From Tridacna crocea (Eukaryota; Mollusca; Bivalvia; Cardiida; Cardiidae): a stretch of DNA of 64,000 bases. The position numbers were made by a program, and so were the translations under genes. Positions within the stretch are counted from its first letter, which is position 1, and each line of letters starts with the position of its first letter. The notes below the pieces were generated by a model, which was given only the letters and a program-made list of their open reading frames with translations, had not been told where the DNA came from and made no database searches. Location: contig OX031071.1 in the NCBI GenBank assembly GCA_943736015.1, positions 15,162,119-15,226,118 of the forward strand, read 5' to 3'. Of this stretch, positions 8,401-42,073 are shown piece after piece.

Positions 8401-11400
8401 GTATAAAAGCTAGGAACTTGAAACTTCACACACATATAGAACTTATTGAGGAGAAGTGCAGTGCACAAGAACCATAACTGTATCTTCAGTATTTTTGGAG
8501 TTATTGCCCTTTGTACATTTTTACTTTGGATTTTTGTCTGGAGCATATCTCCAAAAGTATAAAAGCTAAGAACTTGAAACTTCACACATATATAGAACTC
8601 ATTGAGGAGAAGTGCAGTGCACAAGAACCATAACTCTGTCTGAAGTATTTTTGGAGTTATTGCCCTTTGTAAATTTTAACTTTGGATTTTTGTCCGGAGC
8701 ATATCTCCAAAGGTATAAAACCTAGGAACTTGAAACTTCACACACATATAGAACTCATTGAGGAGAAGTGCAGTGCACAAGAACCATAACTCTATCTTCA
8801 GTATTTTTGGAGTTATTGCCCTTTGTAAATTTTTACTTTGGATTTTTGTCCGGAGCATATCTCCAAAGGTATAAAACCTAGGAACTTGAAACTTCACACA
8901 CATATAGAACTCATTGAGGAGAAGTGCAGTGCACAAGAACCATAACTCTATCTTCAGTATATTTGGAATTATTGCCCTTTGTAAATTTTACATTTGGATG
9001 TCAGCAGCATATCTCCAAAAGTATAAAAGCTAGGAACTTGAAACTTCACATATAGAACTAATTGAGAAGAATTGCAGTGCACAAGAACCATAACTCTATC
9101 TTCAGTATTTTTGCAGTTATTGCCCTTTGTAAATTTTTACTTTGGATTTTTGTTCGCACATTTCTATTTAGATTCACAGGCTTTTTTTGACTGATTACGC
9201 TTTGATGAATTTATCCTGTTCTGGAACAAGTGCTAGTTTATTTTTCATACTTATTATTCCCCTGGTGGGTGGGGGGGGATATGGTAATAGTCTCTGTCAG
9301 GCCCTCCTTCTGTCCCCGATTTTTATCCGGAAGATAACTTAACCAGTATATCAGATACCAACTTCAAACTTCGTAAGTGGATAGATCTTGTAAGGAGGAG
9401 TGCAGTGTACATGAATGACAACTCTGTCCTTCAAATTTTTGGAGTTATTGCCCTTCGTTATTTTTCAGGCTTGATTTTTTTTCTCTAGCACATAACTTGA
9501 AAATTGTTTCACATATCAACTTGAAAATTTGTATGTGTCTAGATTTCAATAAGGAGAAGTGCAGTGCAGAAGAATAATAACTCTAACTTTCATAATTTTT
9601 GAGTTATTACCCCTTCTTATTTTTCAGGCTTAACTTTTGTCCAGAACATAATTGAAAAACTATTTCAGATATGAACATGTAACTTAATCGGTGGATGGAT
9701 CTTACCGTGAGGAGTGCAGTGTACAAGAACGATAACTCTGGCAATATGATTTTTGAATTATTGCCTGGCAATATGATTTTTGAATTATTGCCCTTTGTTA
9801 TTTTTCATGCTCAATTTTTGTCCAGGACATAACTCAAAAATTATTTCAGTTAATGGCATGTTTCATCATACGTGGATAGATTTTATTGTGGGGGACTACA
9901 TCGCACAAGAATGATAACTCTGCTTTTTATGATTTTTGAGTTATTATGTAATGAAATCCTGTGCCATGGAGCAAGGGAGCTTAATGTATAATTTTATCAT
10001 GGACTAATAACAAAAAGGCCACATGTACATGCAAAACACAATACCTCTTATACGTTTGTATCAAAAAAGGTCTTTTTCGGCAGGGGATATCATTTCAACG
10101 AAATTGCTTGTATGTATTAATTTAACCCTTTACTAGACAAACCCGACTTTTAACGACCCTGAGAAAGAAGTCTTTTGAAAACATTGTGAGGAAAGGAGAA
10201 AATGCTGGTTACCAGCATTTCCTCCTTTCCTCACAATGTTTTCTACCCTTCCCAAAACAAATTTCAAGTTTTGAGCCACATTTATTTTGTCATCTGCAAA
10301 TGCTTTAAATTTGGACCTGTCTAAAATCGGGTCGTTTGGTCAAGAGTTAAATGTAGCTCGACTGATAGTTTATTTTTCTGAAAGAGCAGAAAACATTTTG
10401 CGAAAAGGAAACAATGCTGGTTACAAGCATTTTTTACTTTTCTCGCAATGTTTTCAAATGCCCTCCTTCCTAAGGGTCATTTAAAACACGGGATTGTTTT
10501 ATAAAGAGTTAATTCATCTTCATTATGCATCGTACCAAGAAAGCCATTATATTTCCATTAGATCCATAAAATTCCTTTTGTCTGATAATCAACTTAATCC
10601 TGAGGTAGACTGGTTTTCAACATGCAGAAAATTAGCCGTCAAAGATCAATCCAGGTCACCCTGTGCCGAATGAGCAGGCTGATCTGGGTCAATATTTTTT
10701 GCAAATGTATCAAATCTCCTTTAGACAGAGTTTGAGTCACATTGGTTTGTTTTCTAGTTCCTTTGATGAATACGTGACAGAAATAAAATCTGGACGTCTA
10801 GAGTGGAGCCCAGTTCATAAGAGTGACCGATTCTGGAGGGAAAATGCAATGAGGCTGAATGAGAAAAACTACGAACTGCTGAAGTATGTGTTTTATCTAT
10901 TTGTATGATTAATTTATGATCAGCTGCCAACCAATTCTTTTGTGTTGTGCTATTGATCACTAGGAAATCACTAGGTTAATTGATTTAATGTATGTTGTAT
11001 GGTGTTTAAAACACCATTTTGAACATTATTTCAGTCATATTGCAGCGGCCAGTCCACCTGTCCATGCTTTTCTTTTAGCAATACTCCATACAGTATTTTT
11101 TCCAAGCCTTTGGCTACTTTCCTACATACCCATTGTTGTAAAAATAGGCAGCAGTGAGAAAGGGATGAATCCAATTGCAGATACTATCATCAGTCCTTGA
11201 AAGAGATTGGCCCAGCCAGGAGCTTTGTGAGTGAAATGCATACCTTCAACCCTTTACCAAACAATTTCTGTGTTTTTTTACGACCCAGAGGAAGAAGCCT
11301 TCTGAAAACATTGTGGGAAAAGGAGAAAATGCTGGTAACCAGCATTTTCTCCTTTTCCCACAATGTTTTCTGTCCTACTGCAGACAAATTTCAATTTTTG

Positions 11401-14400
11401 AGTTACGATTATTTTGTTGTCTGCAAGTGCTTTCAATTTGGACCTGTCTGAAATTTTGTTGCTTGGTAAAGAGTTAATCTGTAATGAGATCCTAACCTTT
11501 GCAATCATATCATTCAGGATAACTGCAAAATAGTGGACAGCATTGCTTCATGATAGGATCGTGAGTTAATGTTTTATGAAATATTATCTGTATCCACAGT
11601 AGAAGAAGATATTTTAGAAAAAGTGGGTAATGTAATATGAGCCTGCATGCCTTGTGCAGTCTGATCTCCTTCACTAGCGGGAAAAGAATATTCTAGAAAT
11701 ACATGGATTGGCCATCCTCGATTAGGCCACATGCTTTGTTCAGTCTTATCATACTCCTGCAAAACGAATGTTTTCAGGGGTATACTGGAATTAGCCTGTC
11801 TGTCTGTTTGTCCGTCTGTGTACAAAATACTACATGTGGTAATTTTGTGTCGCAAACTCCTTCTACAGTTTCCCTTCAATTGTATTGAAACTTTGCACAT
11901 ATACTGATTATAAATCAAAGATTTGCAAGACGCAATTTTAAACTGTAAGCTCTAGTTTTGATCTGTACTATCCACAGGAGAAGGTAAAGTTTAGCCAAGG
12001 CCTAATTCTTTACCAAATGACAAAATTTTAAGCTGGTCTAAATTGAAACCATTTGCAGGCAACATATGAAATACTGCTCTTATGGTCAGATTTGTCTATA
12101 TTAGAAAGAATTAAGAAACACTTCAGGAACAAGGAAAAATAACTGGTTACCAACATTTTCTCCTTTTCCCGCAATGTTTTCACAAGGGTTGTGAAAGTTG
12201 GGATTGTGTGGTAAATTGTTAAACTTTAAATGATTGATCAGATCATTCATTAAGATACTTTGTTTCAGAATTTTGGTTAGATTATTGGAAGGCAGCAAGG
12301 ATCCTCTAATACTGTCAGTTGCAGCCCATGACATTGGTGAATATGTAAGGTACTACCCTAGGGGGAAAAAGTAAGTATTTCATTGATACACAGTCTTTAA
12401 GTTTCCACCACTCAAACCTGACTGTTACAGACTTTCAGGAATGAAGACTTATGAAAATGTTGAGAGAAAAGGAGGAAATGATGGTATCTAGCATTTTCTC
12501 CTTTTCCCACAGTGTTTACTATCCTTTCTGAAAATTTGAGCCAAGGCTATGGACATATAAGACAAATTTTTCCAGCCGACAGATTTTTAAAAAAAAATTG
12601 CACATACAAAGCTCATCACATTTTTAGGCAATTACAGTTAAAAAAAGAAAAAAGATTTGGGTACCTGTGCTTGTTTGATAAATGTACATATATGCATGTT
12701 ATATATTGACCATTAAGTTAAGAAAAGAGATAATTTGATCGAATCAAGGATTAATTTTTAAAAAATACATACTTTCTTACATAACCAGCATTTTCTCCTT
12801 TTCCCACATTGTTTTCCACCCTTCCAAGCACAAATTTCAATTTTTTCAGACACATATATTTTGTTGTCTGCAAATGCTTTCAAGTTGGACCAGTCTAAAA
12901 TTATGTCGTTTGGTAAAGGGTTAACCCTTAAAGTGCTGAATTAATACAAGAGACATTTTTAAAAAGGAAAAACATCTGAAATATTGCTGTACCAAAGTTT
13001 TTTTGGCTAGAATATGTAACAATAAAGTGGACAGTGTAGATCCAAGATCAGACTGCATGTTCTGTGCAGTCTGATCTTGATCTACACTGTCCACAAATAC
13101 AAGTTAACTTGGTTCCAGCACTTTAAGGGTTAAGGAAGAGAAGAAATCATTTAAGCCACATTTATATTGTCATCTGTAAATGCTTTCAATTTGGTCAAGT
13201 TCAGAATTTTTGGTTTAGTAAAGACTTAAACCACCTTTTCACAGAGCATGTCTCAATTATATTTTACAGTGTTATAGAGCAGCTAGGAGCCAAACAGTTA
13301 GTGATGCAATATTTGGTCCATGAAGATCCCAATGTTAGATACGAGGCTTTGATAGCTGTACAGAAACTTATGGTTCATAATTGGTAAGGGATTTAACCCA
13401 TTACCACACAACCCCTACTTTTGACACCCCTGAGAAAGAAGCCTTTTGAAAACACTGTGGGAAAAGGAGAAAATGCTGGTAACCAGCATTTTCTCCTTTT
13501 CCCCCAGTGTTTTCTACCCTTCCCAGAACAAATTTCAATTTTTCAGTCACCTTTATTTTGTCGTCTGCAAATGCTTTCAATTTAGACCAGTCTAAAATTT
13601 TGTCATGTGGTAAAGAGTTAAATGGATTTTATCCAATCTTTACTATACAGTATAGTTTCTAGGCATACCTGGCATAAAGGCTTTTGAAGAAGTTATTAGG
13701 AAAAATTGTAGTGCATTTTCCACAATGTTTTTCCCTTCTACCCTTTACATAGGCAAATGTCATCAATTATCAATTTATCCTGCATAATTTTTGTCCTCGT
13801 TATTTGTCGTCTGCAATGCTTTAAATTCGGGGTCCAGGGTTTGATCCCTGGCTCAGCCAATTTCTTTCCAAGGGTTGGTGATTGTCATTGCTACACCTCT
13901 CCCACTGTCGACCATTGTTGCGACAATGATCATTTGGGAAAGCAGCCAGTGGCTTTGAAAGAAAATTGTGCAAAGCACTGGTAAAAGAAATTCCAGGAAC
14001 AAATGGATAAGTGCACTGGCTGCCATGATGTAACTGAAATAATGTTGAAAATGGCGTTAAACCCCATACAATCAACCATTAAATTCAGCCTAGCCTAAAC
14101 TTTTTTCTCTGGTAGAGAGTTAACTTGTTACAACACCCAATTTTTGACTTGTCCAATTTAAAAGCATTTGAAAAACAAATCTGGACTGATCTCCACAAAC
14201 TTAGATTGTTCTTTGGCAAGGCAGTGCAAAGGCCCAGCTAGTGCTGGTTGAAACCTGCAGAAAAGACAAGAGTAAGTGAACTGGCTGTATGAAGTGACTG
14301 GAAATGGATACAGAAAAACCTACCATTAGTGGCCACCTCTGTAGCTCAGTCATCCTGTGCTAACACTCTACCAAACAATAAAAATTTCAGACTTGTCCAA

Positions 14401-16222: not shown

Positions 16223-16238
16223 GTCTATTTATTGTCAT

Positions 16239-16459: not shown

Positions 16460-16566
16460 AATAAAAAGTTTTTTGGCAAAGGATTTATTACTTTGATCAA
16501 TGTTTTTGTGTATACATGTATTTAAAATTGTTAGATGCACACATATTTCATTGTTTACATTCACCT

Positions 16567-22587: not shown

Positions 22588-22815
22588 TTAACCTTTTCCC
22601 AAACAAGCCCTTGTTTTTACGTGTCTGCTGTAGAAGTCTTTTGAAAACACTGTGGGAAAAGGAGAAATTGCTCATAACGAGCAATTTCTCCTTTTCCCAC
22701 AGTGTTTTCTGCCCGTTCAGATAATTGTCTGCCATTGTTATGAAAGTTAAAATTGTCGTCTGCAAACCCTTTCAGTTTGGAAGAGTCTAAAATTTGTCGT
22801 TTGGGAAAGGGTTAA
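22588..22815 (+). mobile_element. TH-Ib element, full length
   Basis: Termini CTTTTCCCAAACAAGCCC and TCGTTTGGGAAAGGG with TTAA. Palindrome with ACACTGTGGG ... AAATTGCTC and exact complements. Its flank shares TCGTCTGCAAA-CCTTTCA with TH-I. Confidence 0.88.
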
Positions 22816-22825
22816 ATCATCGTTA

Positions 22826-23054
22826 TTAACCCTTTACTCCATAGATACTCATTTCTATGCATTGCTTGTAGGAGCCTTTGGAAAACATTGTGGCAAAAGG
22901 TGAAATGGCTCGTGACGAGCAATTTCACCTTTTGCCACAATGTTTTCTATGCTATCAAAAGGTGTCATATACACATAAGAAACGGCTTCATCTTTGCTGT
23001 TATTTAGGGTCAATTAGAGATACCATAGAAATGCCTTATGGGGTAAAGAGTTAA
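22826..23054 (-). mobile_element. TH-II element, full length
   Basis: 229 bp, both TTAA sites. Arms ATTGTGGCAAAAGGTGAAA and complement, the GTGGC/GCCAC variant paired on both sides. GGGTCAATTAGAGATACCAT near the right end marks the family. Confidence 0.88.
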
Positions 23055-23904: not shown

Positions 23905-26612
23905 GTTAACTCTGTACCATATGACAAAATGTTAGCTTTGTTCAAACTTACAGCATTTGCAGACGACAATTTCAATGTGACTCGAATGTTGCAAAGTTCT
24001 TTTCTTTGAAAGGGTGGAAAACTTGGGAAAGGAAAACATGTTGGTCTACAGCATTTTTAGCTCACCTGAGCACGAAGTGCTCATGGTGAGCTATTGTGAT
24101 CGTGCTGTGTCCGTCGTCCGTCGTCCGTCGTGCGTCGTGCGTCGTCCGTCGTCAACTTTTTACCTTGTGTACGCTCTACAGGCCACAGTTTTGGTCGGAT
24201 ACTCATGAAAGTTGGTCAGGATGTTTGTCTCGATGAAATCTCGGACAAGTTCGAAAATGGGTCATGTGGGGTCAAAAACTAGGTCACTAGGTCAAATCTT
24301 AGAAAAACCTTGTGTACGCTCTAGAGGCCGCATTTTGAGTCCGATACTCATGAAAGTTGGTCAGGATGTTTGTCTCGATGATATCTCGGACGAGTTCGAA
24401 AATGGGTCATGTGGGGTCAAAAACTAGGTCACTAGGTCAAATCTTAGAAAAACCTTGTGTACGCTCTAGAGGCCGCATTTTGAGTCCGATACTCATGAAA
24501 GTTGGTCAGGATGTTTGTCTCGATGATATCTCGGACGAGTTCGAAAATGGGTCACGTGGGGTCAAAAACTAGGTCACCAGGTCAAATCTTAGAAAAACCT
24601 TGTGTACGCTCTAGAGGCCGCATTTTCAGTCGGATACTCATGAAAGTTGGTGAGGATGTTTGTCTCGATGATTTCTCGGATGAGTTCGAAAGTGGGTCAC
24701 GTGGGGTCAAAAACTAGGTCACCAGGTCAAATCTTAGAAAAACCTTGTGTACGCTCTAGAGTCCACATTTTCAGTCGGATACTCATGAAAGTTGGTCAGG
24801 ATGTTTGTCTGGATGATATCTCGGACGAGTTCGAAAGTGGGTCATGTGGGGTCAAAAACTAGGTCACCAGGTCAAATCTTAGAAAAACCTTTTGTACGCT
24901 CTAGAGGCCACATTTTCAGTCGGATACTCATGAAAAATGGTCAGGATGTTTGTCTGGATGATATCTCGGACGAGTTCGAAAGTGGGTCACGTGGGGTCAA
25001 AAACTAGGTCACCAGGTCAAATCTTAGAAAAACCTTTTGTACGCTCTAGAGGCCACATTTTCAGTCGGATACTCATGAAAAATGGTCAGAATGTTTGTCT
25101 GGATGATATCTCGGACGAGTTTGAAAGTGGGTCACGTGGGGTCAAAAACTAGGTCACCAGGTCAAATCTTAGAAAAACCTTTTGTACGCTCTACAGGCCA
25201 CATTTTCAGTCCGATACTCATGAAAGTTGGTCAGGATGTTTGTCTGGATGATATCTCAGACGAGTTCGAAAATGGGTCACGTGGGGTCAAAAACTAGGTC
25301 ACCAGGTCAAATCTTAAAAAAACCTTTTGTACGCTCTAGAGGCCACATTTTTAGTTGGATACTCATGAAAGTTGGTCAGGATGTTTGTCTGGATGATATC
25401 TCGGACGAGTTTGAAAATGGGTCACGTGGGGTCAAAAACTAGGTCACCAGGTCAAATCTTAGAAAAACCTTTTGTACGCTCTAGAGGCCACATTTTCAGT
25501 CGGATACTCATGAAAGTTGGTCAGAATGTTTGTCTGGATGATATCTCGGACGAGCTTGAAAATGGGTCACGTGGGGTCAAAAACTAGGTCACTAGGTCAA
25601 ATCTTAGAAAAACCTTTTGTACGCTCTAGAGGCCATATTTTCAGTTGGATACTCATGAAAGTTGGTCAGGATGTTTGCCTGGATGATGTCTCGGACAAGA
25701 ACGAAAATGGGTCATGTGGGGTCAAAAACTAGGTCACTAGGTCAAATGTTAGAAAAACCTGTTGTAGGCTCTAGAGGCCACATTTTCAGTCCGAAACTCT
25801 TGTAAGTTGGTCAGAATGTTTGTCTTGATGATATCTCAGACAGGTTTGAAAATGGGTCATTGGGGGTTAAAAACTAGGTCACCAGGTCAAATCTTAGAAA
25901 AACCTTGTATATGCTCTGGATGCCACATTTTCAGTCCAACACTCTTGAAAATTAGTCAGAATGTTTGCCTTTATAATATCTTGGATGAGTTTGAATATGG
26001 GTCATGTTGGGTCAAAAACTGGGTCAATAGGTCAAATGTTATAAACACCTTTTGTATGCTCTGGAGGACACATTTTCAGTCTGATACTCCTTAAACTTGT
26101 TCATAATATTTGTCCTGGTGATACCTTGAATGAGTTTGAAAATGGGTCATGTGGAGTCAAAAACTAGGTCAATGGGTCAAATATTAGAAAAACCTTGTGT
26201 ACACTCCAGAGGCTACATTTTCTGCCTGATACTCTTCAGACTTGGTCAGAATGTTTGTTTTGGTGATGTCTCAAAGGAGTTTGATAATGGGTATTTGTCG
26301 GGTCCAAAACTAGGTCACTTGATGAAATCTTAGAAAAACCTTTTGTACACTGTAGAGGCCACATTTTCAGTCCAATACTCATGAAACTTGGCCAGAATGT
26401 TTGTCTTATTGATATCTCAAAAGTGTTTGATGATGGGTAATGTCTAATAAAAAACTAGGTCACTGGGAAACTAGATGGTGCATGTTTGGTCAATAAACTC
26501 AGGTGAGCGATTTCAGGGCCATCATGGCCCTCTTGTTTCCTTTTCCCACAATGTTTTAAAAGGCTTCTTTTGCGGGGTCTTTAAAAGTTGGCATTGTGCA
26601 GAAAAGGCTTAA
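23905..26612 (-). mobile_element. TH-I element split by TC3
   Basis: First part 23905-24058 (TTAACTCTGTACC ... left arm ... ACAGCATTTT); second part 26536-26612 (TTTCCTTTTCCCACAATG ... GGCTTAAA, TTAA 26609). The two parts add up to a full element of about 230 bp. Confidence 0.78.
24059..26535 (+). mobile_element. TC3: tandem-core element with 145-bp core, Helitron-like
   Basis: The 5' hairpin has outer AGCTCACC/GGTGAGCT and inner GAGCAC/GTGCTC with a GAA loop (24059-24092). A CGTCCGTCGT minisatellite follows (about 24108-24150), then about 16 core units of 145 bp; GGTCAGGATGTTTGTCT marks recur every 145 bp and decay rightwards. Before the 3' end is a hairpin AGGGCCAT/ATGGCCCT (26515-26531), then CTTG (26532-26535). 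It sits inside the right hairpin arm of a TH-I copy, which fixes both ends; there is no obvious target duplication, only T on both sides. The chained 71-codon ORFs follow from 145 not being a multiple of 3 and are not genes. Confidence 0.8.
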
Positions 26613-26674: not shown

Positions 26675-27101
26675 AATCACTTACCTAACAACAAAATTTT
26701 GTACTCTACCAAATTCAAAGCATTTGCAGACACAAATTCAAAGCATTTGCAGAAAAAACACTGATTGTTGCTCAAATGATGATAGCTGTCTTTGATATTA
26801 AACTAAACATTGTGGGAAAAGGAGAAAATGCAGGTAAATTTTAGCATTTTCTCCAGTTTCCTAGAGTTTTTTCACAAGCCTTCTTTGGGAAAGTGAAAAC
26901 TTGGGACTGTGTGGTGAAGAGTTGAAAAAGATGTTTATCTGTCCTTAAAATCTTAATATTTTATGAAAAAAATCAACTTTTATCAATCTAGACAAAGAAG
27001 ACTATGGAAAACATTTTTGGAAAAGGAGAAAATAATGGTATTAAGCATTTATCTTCTGTTTCCTTCATGCATTTAGACCTTTCAAACTCAAATCTGATTG
27101 T
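26675..27101. mobile_element. two diverged TH-I copies
   Basis: A reverse copy at 26675-26925 with a small internal duplication of AAGCATTTGCAGA, and a truncated forward copy at 26990-27101. Confidence 0.6.
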
Positions 27102-27329
27102 TTAACCCATTACCACACAATCCCTACTTCTGACGCCCCTGAGAAAGACGCCTTTAGAAAACATTGTGGGAAAAGGAGAAAATGCTGGTAACCAGCATTT
27201 TCTCCTTTTCCCACAGTGTTTTCTACCCTTCCCAGAACAAATTTCTATTTTTTAGTCACCTTTATTGTGTCGTCTGCAAATGCTTTCAATTTAGACCAGT
27301 CTAAAATTTTCTTGTGTGTAAAGAGTTAA
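27102..27329 (+). mobile_element. TH-I element, first of a three-element chain
   Basis: 228 bp. Its right TTAA (27326) is also the left TTAA of the next element. Confidence 0.88.
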
Positions 27330-27554
27330 CCCTTTACCAGACAACAAAATTTTAGCTCTGTCCAAATTGAAAGTATTTTCAGACGACAATTTCAGTGTGG
27401 TTCAAATGGTGCAATTGTTTATTGATTAGGTAGAAAACATTGTTGGAAAAGGAGAAAATGCTGGTTACCAGCATTTTCTCCTTTTCCCACAATATTTTCA
27501 AAATGCTTCTTTTCCAGGGGCGTCAAAAGTAGGGATTGAGTGGTAATGGATTAA
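27326..27554 (-). mobile_element. TH-I element, second of the chain
   Basis: 229 bp, opposite orientation. Shares TTAA 27326 and TTAA 27551 with its neighbours. Confidence 0.88.
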
Positions 27555-27776
27555 CTCTTTACCAAACAACAAAATAACTAATCTAAATTGAAAGCATTTG
27601 CAGACGACAAAATAAACATGAATCAAAAAATGAAATTTGATTTGGGAAGGGTAGAAAACATTGTGGGAAAAGGAGAAAATGCTGGTTACCAGCATTTCCT
27701 CCTTTTCCCACGATGTTTTCAAAAGGGCTCTTTTGTTAGTGTTGTTAAAAGTCGGGATCGTGTGTTGAAGAGTTAA
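27551..27776 (-). mobile_element. TH-I element, third of the chain
   Basis: 226 bp, ending TTAA 27773. A three-base deletion near the first mark. Confidence 0.85.
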
Positions 27777-27798
27777 GCCACATTTACATGTCTAGAGG

Positions 27799-27880
27799 TG
27801 TCCGCCAATGTAGCTCAGTGGTAAGCATATCAGACTAGTGAGTTACTGGTTGGGAATTCAATACCTGGTTGAGGCATGCT
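27799..27880 (+). mobile_element. tRNA-like sequence (SINE head or tRNA pseudogene)
   Basis: A box GTAGCTCAGTGGTAAGC and B-box-like GGGAATTCAATACC at tRNA spacing. The acceptor stem does not pair well, so it is not a sound tRNA gene. Confidence 0.45.
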
Positions 27881-28028
27881 TTCTTTCAGGCAATTTGTTT
27901 TTCCTCTCACCTCTGATGTATGTGAGAAAGTAGTTAGAGATTTGAAAAGAAAGCTGTGTCAGTATTGACGTTAAGAAATCCGGAAAATAGCCTGTAATTG
28001 TCTTGATAGTGGGTTTTTTTTCTTTGTA

Positions 28029-28257
28029 TTAACCCATTACCACACAAACCCTAGTTTTAACTACCCTCAGAAAAAAAGCCTTTAGAATACAGTGTGGGAA
28101 AAGGAGAAAATTATGGTAAGTATAATTTTCTCCTTTTCCCACAATGTTTTCTACCCATCACAAAACATAATTCAAATTTCTTTCACTTTTATTTTGTCGT
28201 CTGCAAATGCTTTCGATTTGGACATACCTAAAAATTTATTGTTTGGTAGTGAGTTAA
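28029..28257 (+). mobile_element. TH-I element with co-varying apex
   Basis: 229 bp, both TTAA sites. The apex side reads AAAATTAT in the left arm and ATAATTTT in the right, a change present on both sides. Confidence 0.85.
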
Positions 28258-28259
28258 TT

Positions 28260-28488
28260 TTAATCCTTTCCAAAACAAGCCCTTGTTTTTACGTGTCTGC
28301 AGTAAACGTCTTTTGAAAATACTGTGGGAAAAGGAGAAATTGCTCCTAACGAGCAATTTCTCCTTTTCCCACAGTGTTTTCTGCCCTTTGGGATAATTTT
28401 CTGCCATTGTTATGAAAGTTAAAATTGTCGTCTGCAAACTCTTTCAGATTGGAAAGAGTCTAAAATTTGTCGTTTGGGAAACGGTTAA
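28260..28488 (+). mobile_element. TH-Ib element, first of a four-element chain
   Basis: 229 bp. The left end is worn to TAAT, the right is TTAA. ATACTGTGGG pairs with CCCACAGTGT. Confidence 0.83.
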
Positions 28489-28709
28489 CTCCGTATCAAA
28501 GTGCTTTGTTTTACAAAACTAAAATAGGCTTTGAAACTGTTGTGGAAAATGCTGAAAGTGCTTGTAACTAGCATCTTCTCGTTTTCCCCTAAATATTTTC
28601 TATCCTTTCAGTGACAAATCTCATCATTTGAACAACATTTTTGTTTTGTCGTCTGCATGTGCTTTGAATTTGGGACAACCCCAAACTCCATCATTTGGTA
28701 AAGAGTTAA
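28485..28709 (+). mobile_element. TH-I-like diverged element, second of the chain
   Basis: Shares TTAA at 28485 and 28706. The hairpin has worn to GTGGAAAATGCTGAAAGTGC / CATCTTCTCGTTTTCCCC; the right half is normal. Confidence 0.72.
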
Positions 28710-28934
28710 CCCTTTACCCCATATGGCATTTCTATGGTATCTCTAATTGACCCTAAATAACAGCAAGGATGAAGCAGTTTCTTAGGTGAAATTGATACCT
28801 TTTGATAGCATAGAAAACATTATGGCAAATGGTGAAATTGCTCGTCTTGAGCAATTTCACCTTTAGCCACAATGTTTTCCAAAGGCTCTTACAAGCAATG
28901 CGTAGAAATGAGTATCTATGGAGTAAAGGGTTAA
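28706..28934 (+). mobile_element. TH-II element, third of the chain
   Basis: 229 bp, both TTAA sites shared with neighbours. Worn at the GTTTCTTAGGTGAAATTG stretch; palindrome intact apart from two sites. Confidence 0.86.
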
Positions 28935-29155
28935 CACTTTATTAGAAAACAGATTTTAGCCTTATCCAAATTGAAAATATTTGCAGACGACAATTTCAGT
29001 ATGGATCAAATGGTGTAATTTTTCTTTGATATAGTAGTAAACATTGTAGGAAAACAAAGAAATGCTGGATACCAGCAATTTCTTCTTTTCCCACAATGTT
29101 TTCAAAAGCTTATTTCTCAGGGCATTAAAAGGTGTTATTGTGTGATAAGGGTTAA
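28931..29155 (-). mobile_element. TH-I element, fourth of the chain
   Basis: 225 bp. Apex variant GATACCAGC; several changes in the left arm not mirrored in the right. Confidence 0.78.
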
Positions 29156-29186
29156 AACAGCTCGGAGTAAGTTTATTTTATTTATT

Positions 29187-29415
29187 TTAACTCTTCACCA
29201 TTTTACAAAATTTTGGACATGTCCAATTTGAAAGCATTTACAGACGACAAAATGAATGTGAATCAAAAATTGAAAATAGATTTGGAAAGGGTAGAAAACA
29301 TCGTGGGAAAAGGAGAAAATGCTGGTTACCAGCATTTTCTCCTTTTCCCACAATGTTTCCTAAAGGCTTCTTTCTCAGGGGCGTCAAAAGTAGGGATTGT
29401 GTGGTAATGGGTTAA
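29187..29415 (-). mobile_element. TH-I element, full length
   Basis: 229 bp with both TTAA sites. One C in the left arm (ACATCGTG) is unmatched. Confidence 0.87.
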
Positions 29416-29735
29416 CTTCTATCAAAACATTTTGTTTTAAAAACTAGGATTTTGATATCCCGCATTTTCTCCTTTTCCTTCATTGTTTTTCATCCTTTTG
29501 GAGACAGATCCCGTAATTTCAGCCACATCTAATTTGCCGTCTGCAAATACAGCAGTCAGAAATTTCATCATTTGGTAGAGATTTTTAACTCTTTACCAAA
29601 AGACAAAATTTTTGACTTGCTGAAATTGAAAGAATTAATTTGCAGACGGCAATTCAAATGATGCTCAAAGGATGGAATTTGTCTTTGATAGGGTAGAAAA
29701 GGTATGCTTTGAATTTCGACTATAGTAAAATTTGA
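29412..29735. mobile_element. two defective TH-I copies sharing a TTAA
   Basis: 29412-29588 lacks the left arm; from 29585 a reverse copy runs to about 29735 and lacks the whole palindrome (AGGGTAGAAAAGGTATGC). Confidence 0.6.
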
Positions 29736-29781
29736 CAGATTATATTATTTGAGCCACATTCCATGTCCTTTATAGGTGGCC

Positions 29782-30011
29782 TTAATTCTTTACTAAAAGA
29801 CGAAATTTTAGATATGTCTAAATTGAGAGCATTTGCAGACGACAAAATTTAACGTAACTCAAAAATTGAAATTTGTTCTGGGAGAGCATAAAACATTGTA
29901 GGAAAAGGAGAAAATGCTGGTTACCAGCATTTTCTCCTATTCCTATGATAATGTCAAAAGGCTTGTATCTCAGGGTCGTTAAAAAAAGGGATTGTTTGGT
30001 AAAAGGTGAAA
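29782..30011 (-). mobile_element. TH-I element
   Basis: Left TTAA 29782; right end worn to TGAA. Otherwise near consensus. Confidence 0.8.
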
Positions 30012-30039
30012 CTGGGCAATACTAAAATTCTGTCTTTTG

Positions 30040-30271
30040 TTAACCCTTTACCACACAAAGATGACTTTTAACGACCCGAAGGAAGAGACTTTTTTCTTAA
30101 ACTTTGTGGGAAAAGGAGAAAATGCTGGTACCCAGCATTTTCTCCTTTTTCCACAAAGTTTTCTACTCTATCAAAGAAAAATGGCATCATTAGAGCCACT
30201 ATGAAATTGTCGTCTGCAAATGCTTTCGAGTTAGATATTTCTAAAATTTCTGCTGTGTGGTAAAGAGTTAA
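30040..30271 (+). mobile_element. TH-Ic element, full length
   Basis: 232 bp, both TTAA sites. ACTTTGTGGG on the left and CCACAAAGTTTT on the right define the Ic arms. GATGACTTTTAACGACCCG mark in the left half. Confidence 0.86.
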
Positions 30272-30399
30272 AAGGTAAAATAGTCTGTATTGTGATACAT
30301 TTGTTTTCATATTGTGATGCATTTGTTTTCATATTGTGATCTGTTTGATTTGATTGTAATCCTTTGTCAAGCCAGCAATTGTTTTAAGAAAAAAATCAT

Positions 30400-30693
30400 C
30401 ATTTTTACCACACAATCAGGAATGGTAAGGACCCTGGAGAGAAAAAAAAAAAAAGTTGGAAAATTTTGTAGCAAAAGGAGAAAATGATGTTAACCAGAGT
30501 TTTCTCCTTTTCTCTCAATCTTTTCCATCTTTTCTGAGACAAATCCTGATATTTCAGCCCGATTGAATTTGTCATCTGCCTCAAATTTGACAATTCTAAA
30601 GTTTTGTCATGTGTTAACTCTTTACTAAACAACAAATTTTAGACTTGCCCAAATTGAAAGCATTTGCAGACTACAAAATGAGTATGACTTAAC
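30400..30693. mobile_element. diverged TH-I plus a terminal fragment
   Basis: 30400-30617 is a worn forward copy with an A-run; 30614-30693 is the first 80 bp of a reverse copy, cut off at TTAA. Confidence 0.6.
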
Positions 30694-31040
30694 CCTTTAC
30701 CACATGACAGAATTTTAGAGTTGTATGAATTTGAAGCATTTACACATGACAGTTTCAGTGAAGCTCATACCAAATTAATTTTTCTTTGACTGGGTAGAAA
30801 ACATTGTGGGAAAAGAAGAAACCAGCATTTTCTCCTTTTTCCATAATGTTTTCAAAAGCTTTCTCTTACAGTGGTGGTAATTGTCATCATTCTGTGGTAA
30901 AGAGTTAAAAACTGAAATTGGTCTTGAGAAGGGTAGAAAACAGTGTGGGAAAAGGAGAAAATGCTGGTTACCAGCGTTTTCTCCTTTTCCCACAATATTT
31001 TTATGTCTTCTTCTTCAGGGATTGTTGGGTAAAGAGTTAA
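30689..31040 (-). mobile_element. two TH-I copies sharing TTAA 30905
   Basis: 30689-30908 has about 8 bp missing at the apex (AAGAAGAAACCAGC). 30905-31040 lacks its outer left part but keeps a near-perfect hairpin. Confidence 0.72.
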
Positions 31041-31111
31041 AACGAAAGTTAAATAGTCTGTATTGTGATAATATTGTTTTGATTTTTATCCTTTCTCAAA
31101 CCAGCCATTGT

Positions 31112-31340
31112 TTAACCCTTTACCAAACAATCCCTGGTTTTTACGACCCTGAGATATAAGCCTTTTGAAAACATTGTAGGAAAAGGAGAAAATGCTGGTA
31201 ACCAGCATTTTCTCCTTTTCCCACAGTGTTTTCTACCCTTTCCAGAACAAATTATAATTTTTCAGTCACCTTTAATTTGTCGTCTGCAAATGCTTTCCAT
31301 TTGAAACAGTCTAAAATTTTGTCGTTTGGTAATGAGTTAA
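31112..31340 (+). mobile_element. TH-I element, full length
   Basis: 229 bp, both TTAA sites. It provides the left part of the 522-bp duplication that follows. Confidence 0.87.
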
Positions 31341-31390
31341 GGTTTTTGTATCTGTATCTTAAACCCTTTTTCAAATGACAAAATTTTAAA

Positions 31391-31622
31391 TTAACCCTTA
31401 ACCACACAGTGATGACTTTTAACGACCATGAGGCAGAGGCCTTTTGAAAACTTTGTGGGAAAAGGAGAAAATGCTGATAAACAGCATTTTCTCCTTTTCC
31501 CACAAAGTTTTCTACTCCATCAAAGACTAACTGCATCATTTGGGCCACTATGAATATATTGTCTGCAATTTTTTTTTTCTATTTAGATAGGTCTAAAATT
31601 CTGCTGTGTGGTTAAGGGTTAA
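31391..31622 (+). mobile_element. TH-Ic element, full length
   Basis: 232 bp, both TTAA sites. Apex GCTGATAAACAGC; arms ACTTTGTGGG/CCCACAAAGT paired. Confidence 0.87.
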
Positions 31623-31690
31623 TCTGCATTGAATGTATTTGTTGTTGACAAATTGTATATGTTTCAAATCATGGTGCTTGTGTGTGTAAG

Positions 31691-31861
31691 GATAGAAAAA
31701 TATTGTGAATAAGGGGAAAATGTTGGTAACCATCATTTTCTCCTTTTCCCACAGTGTTTTTACCCTTTCCAGAACAAATTACAATTTTTCATTCACCTTT
31801 GTCGTCTGCAAATGCTTTCCATTTGAAACAGTCTAAAATTTTGTCGTTTGGTAATGAGTTA
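31691..31861 (+). mobile_element. TH-I element lacking its left end
   Basis: Left arm worn (TATTGTGAATAAGGGG), right half near consensus, TTAA 31858. It straddles the duplication junction. Confidence 0.65.
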
Positions 31862-31912
31862 AGGTTTTTGTATCTGTATCTTAAACCCTTTTTCAGATGA
31901 CAAAATTTTAAA

Positions 31913-32144
31913 TTAACCCTTAACCACACAGTGTTGACTTTTAACGACCATGAGGCAGAGGCCTTTTGAAAACTTTGTGGGAAAATGAGAAAATGCTGAT
32001 AAACAGCATTTTCTCCTTTTCCCACAAAGTTTTCTACTCTATCAAAGAATAACTGCATCATTTGGGCCACTATGAATATATCGTCTGCAATTTTTTTTGC
32101 CTATTTAGATAGGTCTAAAATTCTGCTGTGTGGTTAAAGGTTAA
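31913..32144 (+). mobile_element. TH-Ic element, duplicated copy
   Basis: Second copy of 31391-31622 with a few differences (GGGAAAATGAG in the left arm). Confidence 0.86.
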
Positions 32145-32212
32145 TCTGCATTGAATGTATTTGTTGTTGACATATTGAGTATGTTTCAAATCATGGTGCT
32201 TGTAGGTGTAAG

Positions 32213-32465
32213 GATAGAAAATATTGTGAATAAGGGGAAAATGTTGGTAACCATCATTTTCTCCTTTTCCAACAATGTTTTTAAAGCCTTCTTGTCAAAC
32301 TTTTACCACACAATCCCGACAGTTAACAAACCTAAGAAAGAAGTCTTTTGAAACACTGTGGGAAAAGAATAAAATGCTGGTAACCGGCATTTTTCTTCTT
32401 TTCCCACAATGTTTTCTTCCCTTCCGACATGAAGTTTTAATGTTTCAGACATAATTATATTTCTG
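32213..32465 (+). mobile_element. TH-I fragments
   Basis: A hairpin remnant at 32213-32297 and a 3'-truncated copy at 32298-32465 with left mark CACACAATCCCGACAG. Confidence 0.6.
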
Positions 32466-32775
32466 TTGTATATATCAATAATTTATTTCGAGTAATAAAA
32501 TATTTTTTTATATTTTGTTGTTCTTGTTGCTTAAACTTGATTTCTGGTAAGAGAAACAAGTTATAAAACTTGTAAAAAATGATTTAGTATTTATTTATTA
32601 AACAGCCCTGCAATAAAACAGGTAATTCCAAATACACAGAGTAGTAAAAGGTAATTTTCCTGGGTCCCACCATCGCCTATCCAAGTGTCTTTTGGACCAG
32701 TTCACTATCCAGCTCTTGGTTTCTCTATCCAAGTGTCTTTTTCTTTCTTCCCTTCTCTCTGAAAGATTTTTTTTT
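32466..32775. other. no gene seen
   Basis: AT-rich, with TCTATCCAAGTGTCTTTT present twice (about 32680 and 32725). Confidence 0.5.
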
Positions 32776-34716: not shown

Positions 34717-34945
34717 TTAACCCTTTACCCCATAAGGCATTTCTATGGTATCTCTAATTGACCCTAAATAACAGCATGGATGAAGCCGTTTCTTATGTGT
34801 ATATGACACCTTTTGATAGCACAGAAAACATTGTGACAAAAGGTGAAATTGCTCGTCACGAGCAATTTCACCTTTTGTCACAATGTTTTCTAACGGCTCC
34901 TACAAGCCATGTGTAGAAATGAGTATCTATGGAGTAAAGGGTTAA
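34717..34945 (+). mobile_element. TH-II element, full length
   Basis: 229 bp, both TTAA sites. Arms ATTGTGACAAAAGGTG and CACCTTTTGTCACAAT, the GTGAC/GTCAC variant paired exactly. Reference copy for TH-II. Confidence 0.9.
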
Positions 34946-35178: not shown

Positions 35179-35185
35179 CAAATGG

Positions 35186-37155: not shown

Positions 37156-37559
37156 GCAACCGGTTGCTTCTGGTTTTTATACTTTGCGCGCAGTTACGTT
37201 GTCTGCATATGTCATATTCTCCGAAGATTCGACTGTCTTATATGATGCATCACTAGCACCAAAAGCGGGCTGACTGTAACATTACGCTCTATAAAGTAGT
37301 AATGTAGAGAATAGCTTTTATCAATACGTTTGAGGAGAAATGTGACCTGCTTTAGCTCCAGATTACTCTAGACTGCTGATCATAGCTGAGTGAATATTGC
37401 ACGAGGTAGCGTTTTATTGAGTAAACGTTTATTTCAGTTTGAAATTCAAAGTAAGGGTTTTCACGTGGGAAAGTGATTCGGTTCTGTTCCCAGGATGCCC
37501 AAATTAGATAGATGAGTATTTATAGAATGCCATCTAGCGGGAGATAATGCGCGCATTAT

Positions 37560-37800
37560 TTAAATATATAAATTTGATTTTTGACTCGTGTGGTCACCAA
37601 AATTGGTTCCATGCTTTCGTGACCCTGGAAAGAAAAGGGAAAAAATTCGGTTTACCTTTCTTTGATTTGTGCAATAGGTATCAGTTGCCTCCGAAAGTGT
37701 CTAAGTTGATTGTACAATTTTATGCGCAGCACGTAACAGTCAGGTATGGGAGAGATATTCATCGTAACTGAATCAATGGTGCTAGTGAGAGAAAATGAAA
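37560..37800 (+). repeat. satellite-linked segment
   Basis: TGGTCACCAAAATTGGTTCC through GAGAGATATTCATCGTAACT corresponds to part of the non-transposon half of every 2,180-bp array unit. The 74-codon frame here is not conserved in those copies. Confidence 0.7.
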
Positions 37801-37954
37801 AGGAAAAATCCATGTAACTAACTAAGCAACAGGTGTCCTGTGCCATGAAATGTTCCCTCAGTTGATTTTTCATGTTTTCGAGGATACATAACAGGCACCT
37901 ATGAGACAGTAGTGAATGGGTTTGTTGTCATGGTATAAAGAGATTTGAGAAAAA

Positions 37955-38011
<57 letters not shown>

Positions 38012-39650
38012 TTTAGTTCCCTATATTTTACTTAAGAAACAGGTGTCATCTGCTATGAAATGTCCAGTCAGTCGATTTTTCATATTTTCGCGGATACGTT
38101 ACTGGCAGTTATGAGATGGTAGTCAACGTAAATGGGTTTCTTGTCACGGTATAAAGAGATTGGAGAAAAAATATATATATCAGAAATTTAGTTGCCCACA
38201 TTTGACTTAATCAAGAGGTGTTGTCAGCTTTGAAATGTTCCGTAAGTGGAATTTTCATGTTTTTGCGGAGACGGTAGTAAACATTAATGGGTTTGTTGTC
38301 TCAGTATAAAGAGATTGGAGAAAAAAAATATTTATTAGAAATTAAGATCCCTTTGTTTGACTTATGCAATAGGAAGCGGTTGCTACTGAAAGAGTCTTTA
38401 GTCTTTATTTAGCCACGTGTCACATTATTTTCTGAGGTTGTTATCTGTTGTCACGGTATAAAGAGATTGGAGAAAAAATATACATTAGAAATTTAGTTGC
38501 CTATATTTGACTTAAGCAACAGGTGTCGTCTACTATAAAATGTTCCATAAGTTGATTTTTTATGTTTTTGCAGATACATAACTGGCACCTACAAGACGTA
38601 AATGGGTTTGTTGCCACGGTATAAAGAGATTGTAGAAAAAATATTAACTAGAAATTTAGATCCCTTTGTTTGACTTAGGCAATAGGAAGCAGTTGCTACT
38701 GAAAAAGTCTTTAGTCTTTTTTAAGTCTACGGTCTCTTTGTTGCCACTTGTCACATTTTTTTCTGGGATTTTCGCATGTGCCTAACTGGCACATATGAGA
38801 CGTTAGTCAATGTAAATGTGTTTCTTGTTGGGGTTTGAAGAGATTAGAAAAATAACATTTCATTTCCTTTTCATTTGATTTATGCAATGGGAAGCAATTG
38901 CTTCTGAAAGAGTCTTTAGTCTTTTTTAGCTGCACTGGCTGAAACCTTTGGCATGTACCAGTCATGTATGGGTGAGATAGTCATCGTAACCAAATCAATG
39001 GCCCTAGTGAGAGAAAATGATAAAGAAAAATCCCTACATTTGACTTAAAAAACGAGTGTCGTCTGCTATGACATTTGCCGTAAGTCGATTTTTCATGTTT
39101 TCACGGATACGTAACTGGCACCTATGAGACGGTACCTAGTCAAAGTAAGTGGGTTTGTAGATTGGAGAAAAAACATATATGTTAGAAATTCAGTTCCCTA
39201 TATTTCATTTAAAAACAGGTGTTGTCTGCAATGGAACGTTCCATGAGTCGATTTTTCATGTTTCTGCAGATACGTAAGCGGCACCTATGAGACGGTAGTC
39301 AACGTAAATGGGTTTGTCATCACGGTATTAAGTGATCAGAGAAAAAAAAAAAAGATTAGAAATTTAGTTCCCTTTGTTTGACTTATGCAGTAGGAAGCAG
39401 TTGCTACTGAAAGAATCTTCAGTCTTTTTTTAGTCACTTGTCACGTTATTTTCTGGGGTTTTCGCATGTGCTTAGCTAGCATGTACGAGACGGTAGTCAA
39501 TGTAATAGGGTTTCTCGTTGCAGTTTGAAGAGATTAGACAAATTACACTTCAGTTCCCTTTGTTTGATTTCTGCTATAGGAAAGCAATTGCTACTGAGTT
39601 TTCATTCTGTTTCTTAGCCACTTGTCACATTAATTCATGTGTTTTTTTTA
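37790..39650 (+). repeat. older satellite, about 165-bp units in two alternating types
   Basis: Type 1 carries AACAGGTGTCGTCTGC ... TCGATTTTTCATGTTTTCGC ... GGATACGTAACTGGCACC. Type 2 carries CTTTGTTTGACTTATGCA, AGTCTTTAGTCTTTTTTAGC and CACTTGTCACATTA. Both end in GGTATAAAGAGATTGGAGAAA. About 11 units, 10-25% diverged by eye. A (TA)n run lies at 37958-38003. Confidence 0.75.
37958..38003. repeat. (TA)n microsatellite
   Basis: Uninterrupted AT/TA dinucleotides inside a satellite unit. Confidence 0.95.
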
Positions 39651-39689
39651 ACACTGTACTTTGATCATTTTGGATTTTCAGTTTCAATG

Positions 39690-40453
39690 TGTGGTGTGGC
39701 CCGAGTTATTAAAGAAAATCCAATTAAGGGGTCAAAGAGGGCATCAAGGGTTTAAGGGAAGCGAAGTAACTCTTGCAAGGTGCTCGAAAAGACCAAAACA
39801 AGGTCTTCTGACACCGTTTTCTTAAATGTTTGCCCATTTTCAGTGAAACCTGGCATGTGTGGATGATGCATGCCTGGCAGTTTGCCAAGGACTGCACAAC
39901 AGCTTTTAAAGAAGGCTTTAAATCCACTTTTATGCCGTTTTTATTCACTGTTTTCTATCGATACAAAAGGGCGCCATTTTGAGATGATTTTGAAGCTCTC
40001 TGATTGGCTGATGGGCCCAATTTGAATTTCTCAAACCTTCTCTGATTGGCTGACTGGTACCCATTCTGATTTCCTTAACCCTTTATCCCAAAAGACATTT
40101 CTATGGTTTCTCTAACTGACCCTAAATAACAGCAAGGATGAAGCCGTTTCTCATATGTATAATATTATGACACCTTTTGATAGCATACAAAATATCGTCA
40201 CGAGCAATTTCACCTTTTGTCACAATGTTTTCAAAAGGCTCCTACAAGCAATGCGTAGAAACGAGTATCTATGGAGTAAAGGGTTAAACCTTCTCTGATT
40301 GGATAATTTCACAGAGGGATGAGATTTGATTGGCTGATTGGAAGGAGGGAGTGTCTCTGTTTATCCTTTTTAACCATTTACCACACAATGATGCCTTTTA
40401 ACACCCCTGAAAGAGAATGCTTTTGAAAATAATTCGAGAAAAGCAGAAAATTC
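39690..40453 (+). repeat. low-copy block, copy B
   Basis: Second copy of 36473-37155, about 3.2 kb downstream. Contains the TH-II insert 40075-40287 and is cut at about 40457 by the array head. Confidence 0.75.
40075..40287 (+). mobile_element. TH-II element with partial left arm
   Basis: 213 bp, TTAA at both ends. The left arm is mostly deleted (ATACAAAATATCGTCACGAG), so the hairpin is lost. The left flank up to TTAA matches copy A, where no element is present. Confidence 0.82.
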
Positions 40454-40457
40454 ATGG
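40370..40457 (+). mobile_element. TH-I left-half fragment
   Basis: TTAACCATTTACCACACAAT ... CCCCTGAAAGAGAATGC; cut by the start of the inverted head. Confidence 0.6.
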
Positions 40458-42073
40458 AGGCCTGTTCCAATGATCTACTCGGATGAAAAAGAAAAGGGGT
40501 GGGGTCCGTGCTGTCAAACGTTAAAAGATCAGCACGTATTCGAAAATCTTTGTTTTAGAATGAAATTCGCCTGTTGGAATATGAGTTCTTAAGACTGCAC
40601 GAAGTGAAAAAGCAGATATTCTGTCAATACTAACATAAGAACCCTTAGTCTTCAGATGCATTTAAGATAGAAGCCTTTAGAAAACATCATGGGAAAAGGG
40701 GAAAATGCTGGAAACCAGCATTTTCCCCATTTCCCAGTGTTTTCCACCCAGCTGGAAACAAGTTTCAATTATTGAGTTACATTTATTTTTTCATCTGCAA
40801 ATGCTTTCAATTTTGACCAATCTGAAATTTGGTAGTTTGGTAAAGAAGTAAATAGGCAATTATGAATAGGCATGCTTTTACAGCATCATTTATTTATTTA
40901 ACAAATTCAAGGAAAAAAAACAAAAAAACTTTTCAGTGAATATGAAAATATTGTTGTCTTTTTCATTTGTTTACATGGGCTTCCCTAAATCAAATGCATT
41001 TACTATTCACATCATTAGCCCTGCAAAAGTCTACTCAGAGCCTGGGTTTATATCAAAATGTAGGCGTGTGAATACCGGAAATCAGACCACCCCACTAATA
41101 AGACCAAATTTTAAAAGTACCGTGAGTGGTCTTAATAGAGGAGTTTTACTGTATAGGGAACTGAATATCTAATATGTATATTTTTTTTCTCCAATCTGCA
41201 AACCCACTTCCGTTGACTACCGTCTCATAGGTGCCAGTTACGTATCCGCGAAAACATGAGAAAATCGACTTACGGCACATGTCCTAGCACACGACACCCT
41301 TTTTTAGGTCAAATTGTAAGGAATTTTCTTTATCATTTTTTCTCACTAGGGCCATTGATTTGGTTACGATGACTATCTCACCCATACGTGACTGGTACCT
41401 GCTGTGCACAAAATTGTGAAATCAACTTAGACGCTTTCCGAGGCAACTGATACCTAAGAAAGGTAAAGCGAATTTTTCCCTGTTTTCTTACCAGGGTCAC
41501 GAAAATATTGAACCAGTTTTGGTGACCGCGCGAGTCAAAAGTAAATTCAGAAGCAACCAGGGGCTGTTGCAGAAACTTTTTCCATGAAAAAGAAAATCTT
41601 GTTGCAGTTTAAAGAATTTAGAAATAGGCCATTAAAGATACAATATGATGTAAGAATAACTAGTAATCAAATTCTTCTTTGATAGGGTAGAAAACATTGT
41701 GGGAAAAGGAGAAAATGCTGGTAACCTGCATGTAACCTAATGTGACAAGTGACTAAAAAAAGACTGAAGATTCTTTCAGTACTTCCTGCTTCCTACTGCA
41801 TAAGTCAAACAAAGGGAACTAAATTTCTAATCTTTGTTTTCCTCCGATCTCTTAAAACCGTGACGACAAACCCATTTACGTTGACTACAGTCTCATAGGT
41901 GCCACTTACGTATCCGCGAAAACATGAAAAATTGACTCATGGAACGTTTCATTGCAGACGACACCTGTTTTTTAAGTGACATACAGTAAAACCTCTCCTC
42001 CTGACCACCACGGCAGTATGAGCAACCCGCTATTAAGAATGATTTTTGCCGGAACGGATTTTTCCCTTCTTAA
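40458..42073 (-). repeat. inverted head of the 2,180-bp array
   Basis: Reverse complement of 42834-44456 with few differences (a 4-base indel near 41665, scattered substitutions). It contains one partial transposon (to 41151, CTG end), the satellite segment (41152-41983) and the first 90 bp of another transposon (CAG from 41984). Confidence 0.88.
40673..40853 (+). mobile_element. TH-I copy inside the inverted head
   Basis: Arms GGGAAAAGGGGAAAATGC and GCATTTTCCCCATTTCCC: the GGGG/CCCC change occurs on both sides. The left end is missing. The same copy, reversed, is inside each array transposon. Confidence 0.75.

What the first reader, a model, noticed from the sequence alone, without database searches (positions are those of the whole stretch)
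10122..40760. Hairpin arms of TH copies change in pairs
Seen: subfamily differences occur on both arms as exact complements. 10122 copy: GTGAGGAAAGGAG with CTCCTTTCCTCAC. TH-Ic: ACTTTGTGGG with CCCACAAAGT. TH-Ib: ACACTGTGGG with CCCACAGTGT. TH-II: GTGAC with GTCAC (34717) but GTGGC with GCCAC (22826). 28029 copy: AAAATTAT with ATAATTTT. 40673 copy: GGGGAAAA with TTTTCCCC. Single-arm changes also exist, as expected for later decay. Inference: arms are corrected against each other (snap-back replication or intra-hairpin conversion), or the stem is selected as DNA or RNA structure.
Basis: partly seen in the sequence, partly recalled or inferred. Interest (0 to 1): 0.8.

Follow-up and report, generated by a model that had tools for sequence, protein, structure and literature searches.

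The report
Covarying hairpin arms in a MITE
A very abundant small DNA transposon carries a long hairpin whose two halves change together more often than shared descent or chance allows, possibly because one half is sometimes copied from the other and because moving copies need an intact hairpin; most changes, however, hit one half only.

Summary
TH-I is a ~229-bp TTAA-ended, piggyBac-like MITE, about 8 long copies per 10 kb; its 57-nt hairpin core occurs perfectly 34,027 times genome-wide. On a tree from flanks only, two-sided complementary changes exceed a same-letter derangement control: 31 vs 16.1±3.5 on end branches, 6 vs 0.2 on inner ones. Genome-wide exact counts agree: at pair 18, 78 doubles vs 13 expected, against 32 vs 20 for a non-partner double. 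Twenty fetched pair-19 doubles lie on several flank groups, none within 0.13 of another, though not fully unclustered. TH-II, a MITE family with unrelated flanks, has the same stem with four pair differences, all two-sided. So arms covary beyond ancestry. Yet one-sided changes dominate (878 vs 100), A·C mismatches are as common as G·T (no RNA signature) and multi-pair tracts are rare. Best reading: occasional arm-to-arm copying plus constraint on the hairpin in transposing lineages; source selection alone, or hairpin exchange, is not excluded.

The parts
10122..10350 (+).
   Evidence: Sequence; profile hit 10122-10340; TTAA follows the 3' end in 72 of 80 copies complete at both model ends
10177..10243 (+). 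Its 67-nt hairpin (32-bp stem, 3-nt loop) with two two-sided changes (pairs 12 and 14) and one one-sided change
   Evidence: Of the seven best relatives fetched (L002-L008), seven keep A-T at pair 14 and six keep G-C at pair 12, one (L005) has G·T
28029..28247 (+). TH-I copy with adjacent two-sided change GC>TA on both arms (pairs 27, 28), found in no other of the 276 aligned long rows
31391..31612 (+). TH-I copy with two-sided pair-6 change (TH-Ic)
31913..32134 (+). TH-I copy with the same pair-6 change
22588..22804 (+). TH-I subfamily copy with three two-sided differences (pairs 7, 25, 30)
28260..28477 (+). Second window copy of that three-pair subfamily
40643..40841 (+). TH-I copy with two-sided pair-20 change, repeated in the tandem array that follows
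34717..34945 (+). TH-II MITE copy, pair 12 = A-T
22825..23054 (-). TH-II copy, pair 12 = G-C
63451..63654 (+). TH-II copy, pair 12 = A-T
6902..7045 (+). TH-II fragment with pair 12 = A·C mismatch
28706..28934 (+). TH-II copy, one-sided stem changes only

Best explanation
TH-I and TH-II are TTAA-ended, piggyBac-like MITEs that share a conserved 32-bp hairpin module. SHOWN: the module diverges less than the flanks, and its arms covary beyond flank ancestry. INFERRED: (a) transposing lineages keep an intact hairpin, so dead copies collect one-sided mutations while surviving lineages look paired; (b) the paired changes themselves arise mainly by occasional arm-to-arm copying (polymerase template switching or quasipalindrome correction) while the palindrome is still near perfect, turning a one-sided mutation into a two-sided one in a few per cent of cases. 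A copied state may then be inherited, giving subfamily-diagnostic paired differences.
For: Flank-tree test: 31 vs 16.1±3.5 and 6 vs 0.2±0.4, end-branch part robust. Genome counts in a fixed 57-nt context (consensus 34,027): pair-18 double 78 vs 735x614/34,027=13; non-partner double 32 vs 20; pair-19 double 307 vs 25 if the 5'-only count equals the 3'-only count of 919. Places with both sides changed: of the first 50 listed, 36 complementary at pair 18 (1,284 places in all) and 26 at pair 27 (284 in all); my hand calculation from the non-complementary classes of the same lists predicts 16.8 and 16.0. Recurrence: the 20 fetched pair-19 doubles fall in four named flank groups plus 'other', the closest two 0.13 apart; the nearest random-set copy is G-C at that pair for 14 of 20, about the base rate of 148 of 195; six pair-18 doubles in subfamily Ib are as star-like (0.89) as eight one-sided ones (0.91) and random ones (0.86). 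Mirrored one-base insertions in both arms: 55 copies (single-arm count not taken). Adjacent paired change in 28029, near-adjacent in 10122. TH-I vs TH-II consensus stems: 4 of 4 differing pairs two-sided.
Against: One-sided changes dominate. 'End branches' in a sample of 171 copies include source-lineage history, so they do not prove events in dead copies. Among 18 mutual nearest pairs: 74 one-sided, 4 two-sided complementary, 6 other, no clear excess. No significant excess in copies with 9 or more stem changes (12 vs 9.5), against steady correction of dead copies. Two-sided complementary changes are 33 transitions to 11 transversions (0.75), as two independent hits predict (0.73), rather than the 0.54 of one-sided changes. 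Loop inversion is not evident in the reliable set (TTA 7, TGA 4, TCA 3 of 137). Mirrored indels in 3 of 81 copies with stem indels. Neighbouring pairs 18 and 19 differ much in excess. A founder cluster exists among pair-18 doubles (five GGT-group copies, ratio 0.29 vs 0.72 for random GGT copies), 9 of 19 pair-18 doubles have another within 0.085, and pair-19 doubles share a nearest neighbour more than shuffles do (0.50 vs 0.125, p=0.0015). The inner-branch excess falls to 0-1 events once divergent copies are removed.
Confidence: 0.45

Rival explanations
1. Selection on source copies alone: transposition needs a symmetric palindrome (a DNA hairpin, or half-sites for a transposase dimer), so a lineage with a one-sided mutation moves poorly until a second independent mutation restores symmetry.
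For: Stem/flank divergence ratio 0.40-0.45 at flank distances of 0.2 and more, 0.67 at 0.05-0.08; flank groups 30 and 31 have the same stem consensus as the main group although their flanks differ; the excess sits in copies with few stem changes and on founder branches; transition share as for two hits. piggyBac and piggyBat transposase dimers bind palindromes at transposon ends (PMC11707139, passages only).
Against: Predicts sibling clusters of compensated copies; 20 of 20 pair-19 and 10 of 19 pair-18 doubles have no other double within 0.085. GC>TA on both arms of one copy and 55 mirrored insertions need several coordinated hits.
Confidence: 0.3
2. Hairpins are exchanged as units between elements (ectopic conversion or recombination), carrying both arms together onto different flanks.
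For: TH-I and TH-II share the hairpin but not the flanks; the pair-25/30 haplotype sits on distinct flanks (L020 and L024 copies, mean distance 0.45 to the other eight carriers). Divergence rises over some 4-8 columns on either side of the stem, so a short gradient is possible.
Against: Exchange spreads paired changes but does not create them; widespread exchange would put old haplotypes on all flanks, which was not seen for the three-pair haplotype in 195 copies (9 carriers).
Confidence: 0.13
3. No linkage between arms: shared ancestry, age heterogeneity and recurrent hypermutable sites mimic covariation.
For: About half of the raw signal disappears with neighbour arms; non-partner doubles are already 1.6-fold enriched.
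Against: Partner doubles remain 3.7-fold (pair 18) and, under the equal-arms assumption, about 8-fold (pair 19) above that control; 0 of 2,000 derangements reach the observed value.
Confidence: 0.07
4. Selection for an RNA stem (hpRNA, siRNA or miRNA precursor).
For: The consensus folds with the 32-bp stem (-75.5 kcal/mol for the 219-nt consensus).
Against: No G·U preference: G·T 241 vs A·C 267, 614 vs 735 at pair 18; no Rfam match in the window at gathering scores.
Confidence: 0.05

Closest known systems
CMITEs of Acropora corals (PMC2872659; abstract, sections 10 and 15 and a term search seen)
   Same: TTAA target duplications, CCCTTT-type inverted termini, piggyBac link, internal region conserved across families with different ends, tandem arrays.
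   Different: CMITEs are about 100 bp, about 1,600 copies in A. millepora; the words palindrom-, hairpin, stem and secondary structure do not occur in the held main text; the parts I read do not describe arm covariation.
Template-switch mutations that create and maintain RNA hairpins (PMC8794818; abstract and part 1 of Results seen)
   Same: Stems with two-sided changes; several simultaneous compensations are enriched there and serve as evidence.
   Different: rRNA and microRNA genes; here a transposon family with tens of thousands of identical palindromes, and few multi-pair events.
Arm homogenization of inverted repeats by template switching in yeast (PMC8604942; abstract seen)
   Same: Arm homogenization, recurrent parallel events.
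   Different: Yeast coding genes; spacer inversion reported there, not evident here.
piggyBac/piggyBat end palindromes (PMC11707139; passages seen)
   Same: Palindromes bound by a transposase dimer in TTAA transposons.
   Different: 19 bp (piggyBac) or imperfect (piggyBat) and near the ends; here a 67-nt internal hairpin, and no transposase was tested.

Membership tests
piggyBac-superfamily MITE | TTAA at both ends | tested here: met
   3' TTAA in 72 of 80 copies complete at both model ends; the 5' TTAA is in 80 of 80, partly by selection of rows; sequence beyond is at background
piggyBac-superfamily MITE | Terminal inverted repeats beginning CC[C/T]T | tested here: met
   TH-II consensus CCCTTTACCCCATA with its mirror; TH-I CCC[T/A]TTACCA, T at model position 8 in 65% of 130 copies, A in the rest as far as seen, so met only in part for TH-I. 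The motif is quoted from PMC2872659
piggyBac-superfamily MITE | TTAA duplicated on insertion (empty site shown) | not tested
   No empty site was sought
piggyBac-superfamily MITE | Mobilised by a piggyBac transposase with matching ends | not tested
Template-switch (quasipalindrome) mutation | Mirrored complementary changes in excess of non-partner sites after ancestry | tested here: met
Template-switch (quasipalindrome) mutation | Several adjacent changes copied in one event | tested here: inconclusive
   5 of 195 copies had two non-founder two-sided changes, 2 of these 5 with the pairs adjacent; 10122 is a further near-adjacent case outside that set
Template-switch (quasipalindrome) mutation | Spacer inversion | tested here: inconclusive
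   TTA 7 vs TGA 4, TCA 3 of 137; part of the further TTA rows have flanks 0.25 or more from any other copy and may be hits on the wrong strand
Structured RNA family | G·U tolerated over A·C on one strand | tested here: not met
Structured RNA family | Match to a curated RNA family | tested here: not met
   whole window

The most novel reading that the evidence does not exclude
Tens of thousands of near-identical palindromes in one animal-like genome form a natural record of germ-line arm-to-arm copying: a few per cent of stem mutations are copied to the other arm while the hairpin is still intact, so a transposon's own palindrome repairs and rewrites itself, and copied variants can seed new subfamilies and hairpin modules shared across MITE families.
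Probability: 0.33. Interest if true: 0.72.

Novelty: new variant of a known kind. Interest (0 to 1): 0.52.

Why it matters
Compensatory changes in stems are usually read as proof of a selected structure. Here they can be counted in a non-coding element with tens of thousands of copies, with non-partner doubles as a built-in control and no RNA signature. The family makes the question 'selection or copying?' directly testable and could give a rate for palindrome correction in a germ line.

Tried and rejected
Loop inversion as a footprint: an apparent TTA excess (24 vs TGA 11, TCA 3 of 248) shrank to 7 vs 4 and 3 of 137 once copies with divergent flanks were removed.

Pair-19 doubles as one founder subfamily: rejected; their flanks are as diverse as those of other copies, although some clustering remains. 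I assumed the 5'-only count at pair 19 equals the 3'-only count (919); in the random set A·C outnumbers G·T there (16 vs 7), so the 12-fold excess is an upper estimate.

Conservation gradient at the stem edges, as ectopic conversion would give: inconclusive; divergence rises over some 4-8 columns on both sides. Shared short motifs between stem and flanks: nothing convincing.

Failed scripts: one search stopped with an error after printing the results used (five of the eight clusters); one search stopped on an error and was redone.

Rows dropped before counts: 17 of 248 stem-covered copies as near-identical; rows of L001-L008, fetched by similarity, (231 to 195); copies with under 100 flank columns (195 to 171); flank divergence 0.30 and more (171 to 137). 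Of 20 fetched loci each, 19 pair-18 doubles, 20 pair-19 doubles and 17 one-sided copies passed the filters; one search used 153 of 156 rows. The 10122 copy fell out with its duplicate L001 and is described apart. The complementary counts are my reading of the first 50 listed places of 1,284 and 284.

Papers: searches listed, by title and start of abstract, no report of arm covariation in MITEs; the library is limited and the lists were capped. The organism was not identified.

Full report
What it is. The window is part of a 1.05-Gb eukaryote assembly with 18 large contigs. The TH copies are a non-coding MITE of about 229 bp: TTAA-CCC[T/A]TTACCA... to ...TTTGGT-6 nt-TTAA, with TTAA after the 3' end in 72 of 80 copies complete at both model ends and background sequence beyond. 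Inside lies a perfect-consensus 32-bp stem with loop TAA. Long hits (over 150 model positions) number 57 in the window and 152 in 19 further 10-kb samples, about 8 per 10 kb; the 57-nt hairpin core occurs without mismatch 34,027 times.

The observation. The GGGGAAAA case is one insertion carried along a ~2,180-bp tandem array. In 231 deduplicated copies 100 pairs are two-sided and complementary, 57 two-sided and not complementary, 878 one-sided.

Ancestry. Swapping 3' arms within age strata gives 38.7±5.8 instead of 100; taking the 3' arm of one of the five nearest flank neighbours gives 41-63, so roughly half is inherited. On a FastTree tree from flank columns only (171 copies), partner pairs change together and end complementary on 31 end branches against 16.1±3.5 for same-letter derangements, and on 6 inner branches against 0.2. 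With copies diverged by 30% or more removed (137 copies): 20 vs 8.6±2.6 on end branches, 20-25 vs about 9-10 on five bootstrap trees; the inner-branch count drops to 0-1. By number of stem changes: 7 vs 1.4 (0-4 changes), 12 vs 5.2 (5-8), 12 vs 9.5 (9 or more; not significant). The signal thus belongs to copies whose hairpin was still nearly intact. A limit: with 171 of hundreds of thousands of copies, an end branch also holds source-lineage history.

Genome-wide counts. In an otherwise perfect 57-nt context: pair-18 A·C 735, G·T 614, A-T 78; expected by independence 13. A non-partner double of the same kind of changes: 32 against 20 expected, a factor of 1.6 that I ascribe to age heterogeneity. 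Pair 19: G·T 919, A-T 307; the A·C count was not taken. In a 35-nt inner context, 36 of the first 50 both-changed places at pair 18 are complementary (28 A/T, 8 T/A) and 14 are not; at pair 27, 26 (21 A/T, 4 T/A, 1 C/G) and 24. Solving the three non-complementary classes by hand for independent hits predicts 16.8 and 16.0 complementary places; at pair 27 the excess is in A/T only. Mirrored insertions of one base into both arms occur in 55 copies (single-arm count not taken).

Founders or recurrence. Flanks of 19 pair-18 doubles, 20 pair-19 doubles and 17 one-sided copies were aligned. Pair-18 doubles include a founder cluster (GGT group, five copies, ratio 0.29) but in Ib they are as star-like as one-sided copies (0.89 vs 0.91); their same-label nearest-neighbour share is 0.105 vs 0.119 by shuffling (three neighbours: 0.175 vs 0.117, p=0.16), yet 9 of 19 have another double within 0.085. 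Pair-19 doubles fall into other 8, CCA 5, IIa 4, Ib 2, GGT 1; they share nearest neighbours more than shuffles do (0.50 vs 0.125, p=0.0015), but the closest two are 0.13 apart, and for 14 of 20 the nearest random-set copy is G-C, about the base rate. Repeated origin is the simplest reading for most of these.

The hairpin as a module. Stem divergence is 0.40-0.45 of flank divergence between distant copies and 0.67 between close ones; within Ib 0.43-0.63 according to which variable columns are left out. A second MITE family, TH-II (20 copies), shares about 19 terminal nucleotides with TH-I outside the stem, but has the same stem with four pair differences, all two-sided, all transversions. Within TH-II, pair 12 is G-C in 9, A·C in 6, A-T in 3 and gapped in 2 of 20 copies, with no associated flank site (lowest p 0.15 of 59 tests). 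This suggests a mismatch that is carried and resolved either way; the intermediate seen is A·C, not G·U.

Mechanism. RNA selection is disfavoured by the balance of A·C and G·T. Pure decay cannot give the partner excess. Template switching between arms explains complementary, recurrent, partly adjacent and mirrored-indel changes without selection, but does not by itself conserve the sequence of the stem; constraint on moving copies does. I therefore favour both layers, copying as the source of most non-founder paired changes and constraint as the filter, at 0.45, with source selection alone at 0.30. Against copying speak the dominance of one-sided changes, the lack of significant excess in old copies, the transition share (33 of 44), the lack of evident loop inversion and the difference between neighbouring pairs 18 and 19.

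Known relatives. Coral CMITEs are the nearest precedent I found for TTAA MITEs with an internal region better conserved than their ends (PMC2872659). Template-switch repair of stems is described for RNA genes (PMC8794818) and yeast inverted repeats (PMC8604942, abstract). The listings showed no account of arm covariation in MITEs.

Noticed in passing
window 34717-34945, 22825-23054, 28706-28934, 63451-63654, 40075-40287, 6902-7045: A second TTAA MITE family (TH-II) shares the hairpin of TH-I but not its flanks; pair 12 is polymorphic as G-C, A·C and A-T.
   Followed up: yes
window ~41700-62850: A ~2,180-bp head-to-tail array, each unit holding a near-identical TH-I copy (spacing of the matches); not in the tandem-repeat list, whose longest period is 500.
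   Followed up: partly
window 1096-2193, 8217-9153, 24162-26418: Satellite-like arrays with 156-bp and 145-bp units.
   Followed up: no
window 26700-32500: Dense cluster of TH copies in both orientations within about 6 kb.
   Followed up: no
L018, L021: 10-kb samples with 26 and 20 long TH hits, against a mean of 8.
   Followed up: no
L020:2794-3000, L024:923-1129: Copies with the pair-25/30 two-sided haplotype on flanks at mean distance 0.45 from the other eight carriers, a possible hairpin exchange.
   Followed up: partly
window 4502-4652: Another inverted repeat, 52-nt arms and 47-nt spacer, unlike TH by eye.
   Followed up: no
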